Positions 44,023-50,742 of a DNA stretch of 64,000 nt are shown here, piece after piece. Each line of letters begins with the position of its first letter. Positions within the stretch are counted from its first letter, which is position 1. This DNA is from Pochonia chlamydosporia 170 (lineage: Eukaryota > Ascomycota > Sordariomycetes > Hypocreales > Clavicipitaceae): positions 248,001 to 312,000 of the forward strand of contig NW_019154049.1 of the NCBI RefSeq assembly GCF_001653235.2, given 5' to 3'. The notes under the pieces were generated by a model. That model was not told where the DNA came from. It searched no databases and saw only the letters and a program-made list of their open reading frames with translations. A program made the translations under genes and the position numbers.

Positions 44023-47000
44023 TTATGATTCAGTTCCGATTTTGAGGTCTTCATTGCCATCATCCAGACCATCGTGCATGTTGAGAGCCACGTCGGGACG
44101 GAAATGCTGGTACGCATATTTCGTTGAGCTTGCGTCCGTCACTAGCAGCTTAAACACAACCCTGGCCGATTTCCTTCTCCGACTTCCGCTCTGTGATATC
44201 ACCAGTTCCTGCAGCGTGGCTAGGAGTGTCCGGATGTCCTCCTGCATGGCACAGGCCTGTGATCACGGATCATGTCACGAATTTCCGAAGCCTCCATCAA
44301 ATCTCGGGCCGGTCCCTCTTCAGCCTCTCATTTCATTTCAAGAAACTTGACTTGCCAGCGATTTTGAGGCAGTGCCCGAGTTCCCTTCATAATTTGCAAG
44401 TCTGCTCACTTGCCTCGGGCTGCCGCTGACATGATAGGCATACCTTGTTCCAGTCCTACTAGCAGCTGGAGGAAAGATCAGCTTAACCGACAGACTCCCA
44501 CTGGTGGCTGAAATAATAACATCGAAGTCAATACGAAGCAAGTTCCCGGTGCGAAGCGTGCCAATGATGTTCGTCGGTATTTCTTGTTCGACATCATTGA
44601 TTTGAAAACCGTAGCTTTCAAATAAAAGTTTCTTGGCGAGGTTGACTTGATACTTATGCTCGAGCTGGCACAATATCTGGCCTGTCACTCTTGAACTCAT
44701 GAGCGACAGTTCCTCCGTCCGTAGGATCTCGACGTAAAACAGTGTTGCAATAAGATGATGCGCAGCGACTCGTAGAGACTCTCGCGCGGGATTTGTGTCG
44801 CTAAAATGATCTTTAGTTTGCCTGGAAAGATCTTCAAGCTGCGAAACGTCATCTAGCTCGGGCCTTTTCTGCATGTCCATATTCAGTCTGTGGAATCTCT
44901 GGAGCTCCTCTCTCGATAATTTTGATGCGAAGGTCTTCCAAATTGGTTCGGTTTCCATTGAATGCATGAAAGAGCTCCAGAGTCGAAAGGGGAATGCGCG
45001 AACCGGAGGTGGCCTTGGATCTTTTGAGGCTTTTGGTGAATGTTCTTCCCCTTCAATTCTACCAGTCCCGATAGAAATGGCAATGTCGAGATGATAATCT
45101 GGCGCCCAGAGGAACCGAGCTTCCTGAACGGCCAACTCAATGGGGCAATTGTACTTGAGTCCGCCATCTTGGAAGTTTCCTCTTTTGGTAGGGTAAGCTG
45201 GAAAGTAGCCAGGTGCTGCAGAAGTGCAGCGTCCCCTAGCAGAATCAGGTACACGAATGTAGTACAGTAAAAAGAAGGGGTTGCAAAAATAGGCTCTTAC
45301 GCTTGCCAAATCTCGAGTTCATCTTCTGGCCTGTTCTGTCGGTAGACTTTGGCTCCTGAGTTGTCTGTGAGTCAACTGCACATGAGATGATCAATCAGGA
45401 CTGACCTCGACATTGATCTCTTCTGCTATAGTTTGCTAATAGAACGACCTCTTCTGTCAAGCAGTCTGTCGTGGTTACTGCGACTTTTATTGATCTTTGT
45501 TCTTCTCCAGACTCCTGTAGTTTTAGTACGGATGTACTGCCAAATAAGGTCCTCCGAGTGTTGTCACCAAAGGCCTCTTGGAGAGCGTTTTCAATTGGCG
45601 CCGCTCGATACAAGCTGTCGTGAAACAAAGCCGATATATAGTTCCAAATTTTGTTTTCACTGTGCCGTGTAAATGCTTTCTTTGCAAGATCCTCAAAAAC
45701 TCGACGGCATTCCGTCGCCTTCCACAGATTACATGCGAGACCGAGTGAAATAATACCACCTGCACGGATTTAGTTATACGGAATGAGAGGTGTTGAATTG
45801 ATACATACCCGTGCTTGTTCCAACAACTAAATCGAAAAACTGATGAATAGGGATACCTAGACCAATTTCTTCCTCCAAGACCTCCAATATGGTGACAGAG
45901 ACCATGCCGCGAACACCGCCACCGTCGAGGGACAGTATCCTAACGCCTGCTGTACTGGGTTTCAATCGAAAGGTCCAAAGTTTAGGCTCCTGTTTACTAG
46001 ACATTTGGCATAAGCTACAGTCTGACAAAGAAATAGTACCTCTCTGTGTATCAAACGTCCCAAATCTTCGAATACAGCTTTCGCAGATTGCGTGTCCGCA
46101 CGCTAATACTTCTTGTGGAATATCTGATATGCAGAAGAAACACGCAGTGTTTGAAAACACTATCGTCCACATATCTTGCTCTACTTTCAATGTCTGACGA
46201 TGCTCCATTATAACCGCTTGTATGTAATTGTCTCGATGGCCATGATGATCGTGTAACTTCTCCCCTATCGTCCGATGGTAGAGCCGGAGTTGATCAAAGA
46301 ATCTTTTCAAGCGAATTTCGTCAAAGGGAGACTCGAAATCGCCCTGCCCAATGACTCTTCCGTGCTTGTTTTGGTGCAAACCACCATGAGTGTCTCTGGT
46401 GTTCTGGCATTGGCCCCCTGAATTGTGATATTTGCATCGACCCCGCTCATAATGTTCTGTATACGCTGTTTTGCACTTATCTCGGTAATGAACATCAAAA
46501 TTTACATTTGGGTGCAGGACTAAATTGATATTTCAGTCAGTCTTGACATGCATGATATTGGGAATGAAGTATTGCGCATATTCTTTTATGCCCAACGTAC
46601 TAAAATCATCATTTTTCAAGGTTGCAAATGACATGTAAGACGCGAGGAGTCGGGCAAGTCGGTCATCTGTACCAGCAGGACTTTCACCAAGATTTGCCAT
46701 TTCGATTGCTTCTATGAGGTGCGTGATATAGTCGCTGAAGTTCTGCGGCGGTGGACTGACCGACTTGAGGACAGCGTGGAAATCAAAAGGACGATCAGGA
46801 TCCCTGGTAAAATGAATAAATGCATTGTTAAAGAACAGATGTAGCTGGGTTGTGTTAAGTCTCGTCCAGAGATTCCTTTTTTTGTTCTGTATCTGTTGGC
46901 ATTCAAAGAGCAAACGTCGTCGTAACTGAAGAACTTGGTCCTGGAGCACATCAGGGGCAACTAGTTCCTTGGAAGGTACGTAAATAACCCGTACCTCAGT

Positions 47001-48461
47001 GAAATACAGTTTAATGAGATCATGCACTGACTTTGGACCGGACTGAGGCTGGCAAGCTACGTTGGACCATGCCTCTGCAATCTTCCGGAGCCCATGGTCA
47101 ATGATTGGCATATCTCGAAAACGATGGAGAAGGTCTTTTGTGGCGGTATCTTCATCCAACCACTCCTCCAGATGATTTCGTGTGCCATTGATCACAATGA
47201 CCACCCGTGGCAACGCAGGCTGGTTGACAGACTTGGTGAGGGACTTATCCGCCCATACAATAAGTTGGCTCAATGCAACCTCTGTAGTATTAGGCTGCTG
47301 GGTGACGAAGCAAATAATCTCGCTGAAGGAATAGAGCATGCGTGGATATAGGTCTCGAACTGCATAGGTTCGACCTGGCATGCTTTCAACGGTTTCCGTG
47401 TTCGTCGAACGCAGTGGTGTTTCGCCTACGGACCTGAATGTCCTCTCTTCGGTGGACCCCGATCGATTCCCCAATTGGCGAACATAACTAAACAAAGTTA
47501 GTTCCCAGAATCTTCATAAGGCAGGAAGCGTTTCTTCCACCTACTCATACCATGCTACCCCGTTTTCACTCATCTTTTTCTTGATTTTGGCAGATAGTGG
47601 TTGGGAATCTCCACCATCAAGCCCTTCGCAGTCAGCAAATAGGAATGGAGTTTGGCTGTCCAAGGTGCTGCCATCGGCATAAAGGTGAACGTCGGCGCTG
47701 TTTGGCGAACCGTCCGCAAGACCCGGTACGGGCGTAGGAAAGTGCCGATCTTGCTCAATCGCTTCATTTTCCGCGGGTCGTACCGTTAAGAGGGCTTTCT
47801 AGTAGGTTCTCGAGCATTAGACTTGATACGATCACGGCTTAAAATCTTGGAGAAAGGGATATTCTTACAATCAATGTAGACTTGCCACTACCAGTTGTTC
47901 CTATAAATGATACGAGGGATGGATACTGATTTCGGCGATTCTCGAACTTGGAAAGAGCGACAGTACGTTGATAGACGTCCGTATTGACTAGTTCAGGCTG
48001 ATCAACACGCTTCCCCGGCGTTAGACCAAACCATAAGGAACCCGTATCGGCTTCGTGCAAATGAGTCATCTTCTCTGGATCATTTTCGCTAGTAAAGATA
48101 CTGTCAACGAGGTCATAAGTCGCTACGGGGATTTGTCGATGCCGAGAGTCGCACCCATCATGGCGTCTCTCCTTCATCCAATCGGCTTGACAATAGATGT
48201 TATCTTCCCGAGGACACCCAGGGCAAAAAGCCATGTGGGATTTCCGGCGCTCATCGCAACCAAAGGAACATTTGTGGTTACTGAGCTCCCTAGATCTGAC
48301 GAAGTGAGTTGTGATCCAAGCCAACATCACAGAGGATGGATGACGTACGATTCATTTTTGTCTGTAGTAGACAGACTCATGCGTGTCTCTGCTGATGAGG
48401 AGTACTTGCTACCATTTCTTTTGAGGCCCACGGGATAAGCGTGCCCCGCGGTCCCAGACAT
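44023..48461 (-). CDS. Zinc-ribbon/GTPase/RING/patatin multidomain protein, about 1284 aa
   Basis: Nine exons: 48461-48349, 48295-47869, 47798-47551, 47487-46601, 46519-45809, 45759-45406, 45355-45301, 45235-44410 and 44256-44023; all GT-AG with phases that join. Domains in order: an N-terminal Cys/His zinc-binding segment (CSFGCDERR...CPGCPRE...C...C), a GTPase-type P-loop GTTGSGKS at 170-177 with DCEG at 236-239, a RING-like cluster (CFFC...CGHAICESC...CSLC, about 685-729), and a patatin lipase domain with oxyanion loop DGGGVRG (757-763), nucleophile GTSTG (Ser794) and catalytic Asp in DGG (955-957). The architecture matches a fungal 'FabD/lysophospholipase-like' family I know from memory. 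If exon 9 is not used, exon 8 runs on to a stop at 44338 (1230 aa). Predicted to hydrolyse lipids when switched on by nucleotide; that is inference. Confidence 0.87.
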
Positions 48462-49623
48462 CCTTTCGAGTCCGTCTAGTCCGAAGTTCTGGTACTTATC
48501 TGAAGCCTCTGAGGACTCTGGGTTCCTTGAAGCCCGAAGCCACTCCCAACAGTCAAAGTATATGCCTTGGGCATGAAATCAGAAAGCGAGCGTTATCGTT
48601 TCTCTCAAAGCAAGTATTGGATCTCATGAAGTTAGGCTGGATAGTGTATATGCATGGGAACTAAGCAAGCGCCAAGTGGTACACTGGCCAGGTGTGAAAG
48701 CATCAGGCAACTGGGTCTGGGTCGATTAAATACATGGACCTAATTCTCTTGCAAAGGAGACCAGACAGTAACCTAACATTGAAACATAAAACCTTGAATG
48801 TGATTGGGAAGGCCCTTCTAGGGTCCTGGGCGGTGGCACTGGGACATCTAGAGGCGGAGTGCACTACCAACGCCCTACAGCGACAAATTACCGCCTCTGC
48901 TGTGCATCTTGCGCCATACTCTCATAAAGCCGTTGTATTTCAATCTCAAGAGCTATTAATATAAAATGCCTTTGCCTTCTCCTCTTCTTTGAGAAGAGAG
49001 GAAGGAGATATCTTCCTTGCATTCCTTTTGCTTCTCACACTCTGTCGGTTAATCCCTTAAGATGATTGGCTAAGAATCCCAACGAGTGCACCACCACACA
49101 AGCCCACACGGGACGAGCCGCCAGAAAATTCAGATCAAATCAAATGGTTTTAATGTCTGGTTTCATTGGGCGCCTCAGGTAACGGAACAGTACATACATG
49201 TATGTAGGTATATATCAATTGATGTCAATACATTAATGCAGCGGTGACGTGTCAGACTATCCTCCAATCAACTGAAACATTTCTAAAAACAAATCCGTCC
49301 AGTCTGGCCGCATGTGCATAGAAGCGGCTACTGACCGCAGCAGCTGAATGATGAGATATAATACCATTCTTTCGAGTCCATGCCTACTCCCCTCATTTCG
49401 GCTTTGCGACATTCGTGGGTTCTGTTCACCTTCGTCGCTATTATGTTATTCTCCTTTGAGCCTCGCTAATCGGCTGTGTTTCCACGGCATTCAGACTACA
49501 CCGACACACCGTATCATTGAAACTTCCGACATATTCCAGGAGGATCAGACCCGACTACGTTCCCCCTGAAGGGATTTTAGAATCCAACACAGGCGTACTG
49601 AGAACCCAAACAGCCTTCTAACA
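48462..49623. promoter_or_regulatory. Divergent promoter of the patatin and GTPase genes
   Basis: A 1.16-kb region between the start codons of the two outward-facing NTPase genes, the only space for both promoters. A TATAAAA element on the + strand lies at 48960-48966. No coding sequence recognised. Shared regulation is inferred from the layout only. Confidence 0.5.
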
Positions 49624-50742
49624 ATGGCCGAAGAAGTTGATGATCAGGAAAATGTAGGTAATACCGGGAAGCGGTCAGCTGGTTTGAACACTGACATGGA
49701 GAGTAGCTACCCTTCAAAGAAGCTGACCTGCTTAACTGCATTGACCAAGAGAGTTTTCTTGTCACAGTTATGGGCTTAACTGGTGTTGGCAAATCGAATT
49801 TGCTTGAACGACTTGGCGCAACATCTCTGCGCACGGTTGATGGCGCTATGGTCGGCCATAGACTCGAATCTCGTAAGTATCATATACATATAGCTAGTCG
49901 TTCCGAGAGGGAGGCGGTAGTAACCGAAGGTAGATACGAGGACAGTTAACTTTTACTCCTTGAAATACCGAGATCAACACTTTCTCTTTATCGACACACC
50001 AGGATTTGAGGACGGTGCGCGTCAAAATTCCGACATACTCCAAATCATAGCACAGCATCTGGCGACTTCGTACAATCACAAGAAATATCCAGATTCTGTC
50101 ATCTACGTATCCAAGATTACAGAGACAAGATTTATGGGTCATGCGAGGAAGAACTTGGATTTATTTGAAGAGGTCTGCGGGACCGACAGCATGGAAATGG
50201 TGACGCTTCTCACTACTATGTGGGATACTGCCGGACAGGTGCCTCCAACTAGGATATCAGACTTTGAATCCCGGGAAGAAGAGTTGATCACCAAATACTG
50301 GAACGAGATGATTCAACAGGGCGCAAAACCTCGTCGTAGTGACAATACAAGAGACTCACTGCTTCCAATACTGGATCAATGCATTGCCCGTCGAGCGCAG
50401 TTGCAAGAGCAGGGTCGGACGCACCCCGCACTACAGCTCCAGACGGAGCTGGTAGAGGACAACCGGAAACTGATAGATACCTCTGCCGGTTCGCTTCTGG
50501 CACATGAATTCAGGCAAACGGAGAAGCGGCTCGAGAACCACAAAGAACGCTTGTCGAAATATCTTGAGGAGGACCCACAAAATGAACGCCTTGCAAGGAG
50601 AATTGAGGCGGTGGAGTATGAAATTCAAGAGAATAAAGAGGCAGAGGATAGGCTTAGATACTGGACAATCGCGGGGATAAGTACCGCCTTCATCGCTGCT
50701 CTTGGGGGACTTCTTGGGCTTATCTTGAGTGCTGCAAGGTAA
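49624..50742 (+). CDS. AIG1/GIMAP-like small GTPase with C-terminal membrane anchor, 330 aa
   Basis: Three exons: 49624-49653, 49707-49872 and 49946-50742. Introns are GTAGGT...GAGTAG and GTAAGT...GACAG; joined length is 331 codons. The first exon is a 10-residue acidic start. Exon 2 carries the G1 P-loop GLTGVGKS (33-40); exon 3 begins with the G3 motif DTPG (82-85, in FLFIDTPGFEDG). A candidate G4 is TTMWDTAG. A long charged helical region (about 225-300, coiled-coil-like) leads to a hydrophobic C-terminal helix (WTIAGISTAFIAALGGLLGLIL), a tail anchor. This is the layout of plant/animal AIG1/GIMAP-type GTPases on organelle or endomembranes. Without splicing the P-loop would be lost. Divergent from the patatin gene. 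Confidence 0.85.

What the first reader, a model, noticed from the sequence alone, without database searches (positions are those of the whole stretch)
44023..50742. Divergent patatin-GTPase-RING protein and GIMAP-like membrane GTPase
A 1284-aa protein unites a zinc segment, a GTPase P-loop (GTTGSGKS with DCEG), a RING-like cluster and a catalytically intact patatin lipase. Its head-to-head neighbour is a P-loop GTPase with G1 and DTPG motifs, a coiled coil and a C-terminal membrane helix. Patatin is a known effector domain of fungal NLR-like proteins, and GIMAP/GBP-type GTPases act on membranes in animal immunity. The pair could form a nucleotide-switched lipase system acting on membranes (self/non-self recognition or defence). 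The co-orientation and the functional link are inference.
Basis: partly seen in the sequence, partly recalled or inferred. Interest (0 to 1): 0.78.

Follow-up and report, generated by a model that had tools for sequence, protein, structure and literature searches.

The report
Fungal GTPase-lipase and membrane-GTPase gene pair
A fungus carries, head to head, a gene for a large lipase fused to a GBP/atlastin-like GTPase and a gene for a membrane-anchored GIMAP-like GTPase; the closest relatives of both also lie on one contig in a fungus of another class, which hints at a two-part membrane defence or self-recognition module.

Summary
The window (Pochonia chlamydosporia 170) carries two intact divergent genes, start codons 1,162 bp apart. 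Gene A (minus, 8 exons, 1,233 aa): B-box-like finger, GTPase domain, RING-like finger, patatin lipase with its Ser-Asp motifs. Gene B (plus, 3 exons, 334 aa): GTPase, helices, C-terminal membrane helix.

New here. (1) By fold, the GTPase of A's family is of the atlastin/GBP type and the lipase is near patatin, iPLA2beta and the CBASS effector CapV (model of a relative). (2) B's model best matches GIMAP7 by Foldseek; VIA-align ties GIMAP with Toc34 and Arf types. (3) A's closest relative and B's clade-mate in Lojkania enalia report the same 543,747-bp contig. Among listed hits, 0 of 4 other species with both families share a contig; 0 of 2 B paralogs at home lie near a patatin gene. (4) B's clade ends in a membrane helix (5 of 5); 10 of 27 other B-like proteins end in a CaaX box; two carry HET domains.

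Best reading: a nucleotide-switched lipase (A) recruited or gated at a membrane by B, probably for defence or self-recognition. Function is inferred; nothing was measured.

The parts
44338..48461 (-). Gene A: B-box-like / GTPase / RING-like / patatin protein, 1,233 aa; exons 48461-48349, 48295-47869, 47798-47551, 47487-46601, 46519-45809, 45759-45406, 45364-45301, 45235-44338
   Evidence: spliced model with seven GT-AG introns and one open frame; 41-42% identity to P0001, over 95%
48139..48270 (-). N-terminal zinc segment, B-box-like
   Evidence: C51, C62 and H90 invariant in 13 aligned proteins; weak matches of a profile of 56 relatives to TRIM28 and MID1 chains, E 0.012 and 0.02 (that these are B-box structures is recalled)
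47878..47901 (-). G1 / P-loop GTTGSGKS
   Evidence: sequence; G170, G173, G175, K176, S177 invariant in 13
47622..47633 (-). G3 motif DCEG
   Evidence: sequence; D236-G239 invariant in 13
46374..46475 (-). second Cys/His cluster between GTPase and RING
   Evidence: C587, C596, H603, H607 invariant in 13
46008..46142 (-). RING-like cluster
   Evidence: C685, C688, C699, H701, C704, C707, C726 invariant in 13; PF13445 17.7 bits, under its 25.2 cut-off
45130..45935 (-). Patatin domain (residues 754-970; split by introns)
   Evidence: PF01734 E 1.4e-27
45758..45821 (-). GTSTG nucleophile elbow (spans the intron 45808-45760)
   Evidence: sequence; S794 conserved in at least 90% of 13
45148..45168 (-). 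DGG catalytic Asp motif
   Evidence: sequence; D958 invariant in 13
   Evidence: open after an intron 44409-44257; no counterpart in P0001 or P0002
48462..49623 (.). divergent intergenic stretch of 1,162 bp, possible shared promoter (inferred)
   Evidence: one match in the genome, itself
49624..50742 (+). Gene B: GIMAP-like GTPase, 334 aa; exons 49624-49653, 49707-49872, 49934-50742
   Evidence: equals deposited protein P0121; PF01926 E 2.6e-9
49773..49796 (+). G1 GLTGVGKS of gene B
49993..50004 (+). G3 DTPG of gene B
50212..50226 (+). G4-position motif TTMWD of gene B
   Evidence: W162 invariant in 28; the assignment to G4 is inferred
50662..50739 (+). C-terminal membrane helix (tail anchor) of gene B
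   Evidence: hydropathy 2.11 over 19 residues, 5 from the C-terminus; helix 311-333 in the model, modelled with pLDDT about 61-72 there

Best explanation
The pair is a two-gene membrane-effector module. B is a tail-anchored GIMAP-like GTPase that sits on an intracellular membrane. A is a soluble lipase, inactive at rest, whose atlastin/GBP-type GTPase self-associates in the GTP state. Recruitment to, or release from, B brings the patatin domain to phospholipids, and lipid cleavage damages or signals at that membrane. The most likely use is defence or self/non-self recognition with regulated cell death; the RING and B-box may set its level through ubiquitin. Shown: gene structures, intact catalytic and nucleotide motifs, fold types (from models, for A on a relative), the membrane tail, shared contig of the two clades in one fungus of another class. 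Inferred: GTP binding, contact between A and B, lipase output, immune role.
Against: Only one other genome shows the linkage and the distance inside its 543.7-kb contig is unknown; Pochonia is the seed, so there is one independent case. P0002 (Talaromyces) has no known B partner and P0123 (Hyaloscypha) no known A partner in my capped, length-limited searches. Among listed hits 0 of 4 other species with both families (Rhypophila decipiens, Echria macrotheca, Xylaria scruposa, Cladophialophora bantiana) share a contig (other copies in those genomes were not seen), and 0 of 2 home paralogs of B have a patatin gene within about 5 kb (read by eye). VIA-align does not single out GIMAP for B: Toc34 and Arf-type rows tie or lead. 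The B clade-mate P0125 matched no PADLOC family. In Podospora 11 of 12 MMR_HSR1 genes were in a set down-regulated in incompatibility (PMC4835503; not family-specific). No expression, polymorphism or biochemical data for A or B. The G4 positions of both proteins differ from the classical NKxD (recalled), so GTP specificity is unproven.
Confidence: 0.4

Rival explanations
1. Two independent genes of two expanded, patchy fungal families that happen to be neighbours; each does its own job.
For: Both families are multi-copy; in the listed hits they do not share a contig in 4 of 5 species with both, nor lie near each other at 2 of 2 home paralogs of B.
Against: Shared Lojkania contig for exactly the focal clades. 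With an assumed genome of 35-50 Mb (not looked up) two random genes would both fall on that contig, given one there, in about 1.1-1.6% of cases.
Confidence: 0.33
2. An allorecognition (heterokaryon incompatibility) or meiotic-drive locus in particular (a special case of the best explanation): A kills, B is the recognised partner or antidote, as with PLP-1 and SEC-9.
For: Patatin effector needed in PLP-1, linked two-gene het systems common; HET fusions of two B-like GTPases; Patatin genes 6 of 9 up in Podospora incompatibility (PMC3689799).
Against: No strain polymorphism data; A is not an NLR. The Podospora genes counted are not shown to be of this family.
Confidence: 0.2
3. A housekeeping lipid-remodelling pair: GTP-controlled phospholipase at an organelle membrane, with no immune role.
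For: Fold kin such as atlastin, iPLA2beta and Toc34 do membrane or lipid housekeeping (matches; roles recalled); a Trichoderma patatin acts in injury oxylipin signalling (PMC10714772, passages; that protein's family was not tested).
Against: Patchy distribution of the focal clades in the searches made and deep divergence (41% and 37%), unlike housekeeping genes.
Confidence: 0.17

Closest known systems
PLP-1 (patatin-NB-ARC-TPR NLR) with SEC-9, Neurospora
   Same: patatin lipase coupled to a nucleotide-binding domain in one fungal protein (passages)
   Different: PLP-1 has N-terminal patatin, NB-ARC and TPR; A has C-terminal patatin, an atlastin/GBP-type GTPase, B-box-like and RING-like fingers, no repeat match; B is a GTPase, not a SNARE
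CapV, CBASS phospholipase effector
   Same: closest solved relative of the lipase domain by sequence profile and among the top by fold
   Different: P0001 is under the NCBIfam cut-off (126.4 of 200 bits); fused to a GTPase and zinc fingers; no cyclase gene was sought
Animal guanylate-binding proteins, atlastins, RNF112
   Different: no PF02263 match for A or P0001; P-loop lacks the arginine that GBP and atlastin carry there (recalled); lipase fused
GIMAP/IAN and Toc34 GTPases
   Same: top Foldseek matches of B; C-terminal membrane helix as in several GIMAPs (recalled)
   Different: AIG1 (PF04548) 18.2 bits against a cut-off of 27; VIA-align ties them with Arf-type GTPases
Eleos (LeoA, LeoBC) anti-phage system
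   Same: best PADLOC match of B is LeoBC (E 2e-10); two-GTPase theme (recalled)
   Different: the match covers about 80 residues of the G domain; the Lojkania relative P0125 matched no PADLOC family; the partner A is a lipase, not a LeoA relative by these matches
Fungal B-box/GTPase/RING/patatin proteins named FabD/lysophospholipase-like or PNPLA domain-containing
   Same: same layout; A is a member
   Different: A, P0001 and P0002 group apart from the rest and lack the long C-terminal extension of several others

Membership tests
Fungal B-box/GTPase/RING/patatin family | same order of domains and invariant residues over most of the length | tested here: met
   13-sequence alignment with shared P-loop, DCEG, RING and patatin residues; 127-row tree
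Patatin-like phospholipases | PF01734 over cut-off and Ser-Asp motifs | tested here: met
   97.6 bits against 27.7; GTSTG and DGG
Patatin-like phospholipases | lipase activity | not testable with these tools
   needs an enzyme assay
Fungal NLRs | NACHT or NB-ARC domain plus repeats | tested here: not met
   neither NACHT, NB-ARC nor a repeat family among the 12 rows for A up to E 10
GBP/atlastin GTPases | fold of the large GTPase domain | tested here: met
GBP/atlastin GTPases | sequence family PF02263 | tested here: not met
   not listed for A or P0001
GIMAP (AIG1) family | PF04548 over cut-off | tested here: not met
   18.2 bits against 27
GIMAP (AIG1) family | fold specific to GIMAP | tested here: inconclusive
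CBASS CapV | NCBIfam NF041079 over cut-off | tested here: not met
   126.4 of 200 bits for P0001
CBASS CapV | adjacent CD-NTase | not tested
   no cyclase search was run
Eleos | LeoA plus LeoBC | tested here: inconclusive
   B matches part of LeoBC (E 2e-10) and LeoA (1.6e-6); P0125 matches none; P0001 matches LeoBC only around the P-loop, E 1.9e-4
Heterokaryon incompatibility locus | polymorphic alleles and cell death in mixed strains | not testable with these tools
   one strain only

The most novel reading that the evidence does not exclude
An undescribed class of fungal immune-type effector: an atlastin/GBP-type GTPase fused to a CapV/iPLA2-type lipase (with B-box and RING), working with a tail-anchored GIMAP-like GTPase as one two-GTPase module that travels or is kept together across classes of Ascomycota, combining the kinds of parts used in vertebrate GBP and GIMAP immunity with those of a bacterial anti-phage lipase.
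Probability: 0.3. Interest if true: 0.85.

Novelty: new variant of a known kind. Interest (0 to 1): 0.62.

Why it matters
Fungal immunity is mostly described through NLRs, HET domains, gasdermins and amyloids. In the main text of five reviews or surveys (PMC10197012, PMC12881547, PMC9815663, PMC4986451, PMC12258605) the word GTPase occurs 0 times; the patatin passages shown treat it mainly as an N-terminal NLR domain. If the pair works as proposed, fungi would have a GBP-like lipase and a GIMAP-like partner, a testable link between vertebrate cell-autonomous immunity and bacterial lipase effectors. Even without the pairing, giving the GTPase of a large family annotated mostly as hypothetical a fold type gives it a mechanism to test.

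Tried and rejected
NLR reading of A: rejected, no NACHT or NB-ARC match. The 1,284-aa model: kept only as an alternative last exon. My first B model (330 aa, used) had a wrong acceptor; corrected with P0121 and its relatives. Broad-family adjacency: not supported. A second A-family search with a two-row alignment (A3) brought no new close member beyond P0001 (next row 365 bits against 1,319); by its length rule it could not see proteins over about 1,180 aa (P0002 is missing from it for that reason), so a long Hyaloscypha partner could have been missed. Starship cargo: 42 DUF3435 matches in the genome, the nearest at C14:321699-323192 on the plus strand, about 23 kb beyond gene B; nothing shows that the pair is cargo. 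Telomere: no TTAGGG or CCCTAA in the last 9,859 bases of the contig. Repeats: the intergenic stretch has one match in the genome. Horizontal transfer: GC3 of A 0.464 and B 0.493 are below the 12 other open frames measured, 0.511-0.614 (raw frames, not curated genes), suggestive at most. Bacterial relatives of B by contig scan: not obtained. Rows dropped: the tree of A used 127 of 149 sequences (those over 900 aa, gene A included); the tree of B used 31 of 32 (partial P0124 left out), with P0140 and P0127 trimmed to their G domain and P0148 cut to 300 aa.

Papers: PMC10197012, PMC12881547, PMC3689799, PMC4835503, PMC9815663, PMC4986451, PMC12258605, PMC10714772, PMC5867883, PMC11249213 and PMC12373286 were seen as listings (abstract starts) and found passages only, none whole. 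The passages of PMC5867883 did not settle what kind of patatin VdPLP is. The Eleos-GIMAP link is recalled; [quoted passage not shown]
Full report
WHERE. The window lies in contig C14 (352,858 bp) of a 44.2-Mb genome in 49 contigs. Gene B is identical to a deposited protein of Pochonia chlamydosporia 170 that reports a contig of that same length (P0121). The fungus belongs to Clavicipitaceae, Sordariomycetes.

GENE A. I spliced eight exons on the minus strand, 48461 to 44338, with seven GT-AG introns. The 1,233-aa product is 41% identical over 95% to P0001 of Lojkania enalia (E 4.8e-285) and 34% over 90% to P0002 of Talaromyces proteolyticus. 121 proteins passed E 0.001 among 7,988 scored (120 listed); the named ones are nearly all from ascomycete fungi, with Babesia ovis at the bottom. 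In 13 aligned proteins most cysteines and histidines of the N-terminal finger, the P-loop, DCEG, a second Cys/His cluster, a RING-like cluster and the patatin motifs are invariant or nearly so. So A belongs to a widespread fungal family that is annotated mostly as hypothetical, PNPLA or FabD/lysophospholipase-like. Gene A groups with P0001 and P0002 (support 100; gene A with P0001, 91; quick tree, P0002 flagged as a long branch). No Pochonia protein for gene A was listed, so the deposited annotation may split or miss it.

GENE B. Three exons, 334 aa. Its model is good (pLDDT 88.8; lower, 61-72, in the last stretch). Foldseek ranks GIMAP7 first (rows 1-4) with Toc34 and GIMAP2 next. VIA-align ties GIMAP2 and Toc34 with Arf-type GTPases and lists a tubulin-cofactor complex chain on top, so GIMAP-like is fair but not exclusive, and the AIG1 Pfam cut-off is not reached. 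PADLOC gives LeoBC (2e-10) for B, nothing for its relative P0125, and CBASS phospholipase effectors (8e-42) for P0001. All five members of B's clade, the partial P0124 included, end in a membrane helix (hydropathy 1.71-2.68), while 10 of the 27 other B-like proteins end in a CaaX box and 0 of 148 A-type hits do. Different tails for what looks like the same purpose argue that membrane attachment matters for this GTPase family.

THE PAIR. The start codons are 1,162 bp apart. The contig column is checked by P0121 and C14. By reading the names, five named species stand in both lists; in one of five the listed proteins share a contig, and it is the one with both focal clades. Copies that the capped lists do not show were not seen. 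Counting the window itself, the focal clades are linked in 2 of 2 genomes in which both are known, of which one is independent. In this genome two further B-like genes and eight further A-like places (E up to 0.001, most matching only the RING and patatin part) are not near each other. The pairing is thus clade-specific as far as seen, not a property of the families.

MECHANISM. Large GTPases of the dynamin superfamily self-associate with GTP (established knowledge), CapV forms filaments with its ligand (titles), and PLP-1 in Neurospora needs both its patatin and its nucleotide-binding motif to kill (PMC12881547, passage). I therefore expect A to be an inactive lipase that assembles in the GTP state, with B as membrane anchor, sensor or brake. 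Two B-like proteins fused to HET domains in Xylaria and the commonness of linked two-gene cell-death systems in fungi (passages) point to defence or self-recognition. In Podospora 6 of 9 patatin genes rise in incompatibility while 11 of 12 MMR_HSR1 genes stand in a down-regulated set; neither count is specific to these families. None of the mechanism steps is shown for A or B.

NOVELTY. Five reviews or surveys searched by passage hold the word GTPase 0 times and discuss patatin mainly as an N-terminal NLR domain; PMC4835503 notes that such effector domains also occur in non-NLR proteins. A 2025 paper mentions CARD+AIG1+HINT proteins in a few fungi (PMC12373286, passage). In ten literature searches, each showing only its top 6-20 rows, no title or abstract start named this family layout or pair; the library lacks most subscription papers. 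I score it as a new variant of a known kind: known folds, a combination I did not find described, and a clade-specific pairing, with modest confidence in the function.

Mended: the GIMAP fold test is now inconclusive, the PADLOC miss of P0125, the RNF112 rmsd, the length limit and the MMR_HSR1 count are told, and the species counts are limited to listed hits.

Noticed in passing
P0140, P0151 (Xylaria proteins): B-like GTPases fused to an N-terminal HET domain, linking this GTPase family to fungal incompatibility.
   Followed up: partly
P0126, P0131, P0133-P0136, P0142, P0145, P0146, P0150; L031 paralog: Ten of 27 non-focal fungal B-like GTPases end in a CaaX box, and so does the home paralog in L031 (ends CCIM, seen by eye): a family with interchangeable lipid and transmembrane tails.
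   Followed up: yes
G000:C14:321699-323192 (beyond the window): DUF3435 (Starship-captain-type) match with one TAA inside, with an equal-scoring match at C7:251-1744, at the start of that contig.
   Followed up: partly
P0048 (Fusarium), P0065: A-family proteins with C-terminal ankyrin repeats (P0048) or a C-terminal NPHP3_N/NACHT-type domain (P0065): members with receptor-like additions.
   Followed up: no
P0001 model residues about 1063-1174: A beta-rich stretch follows the patatin domain; not searched alone.
   Followed up: no
window 44338-50742: Both genes have lower GC3 (0.464, 0.493) than the 12 other open frames measured (0.511-0.614).
   Followed up: partly
P0123 (Hyaloscypha): Annotated B relative lacks the P-loop; a mis-spliced gene model is likely, but a real loss is not excluded.
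   Followed up: no
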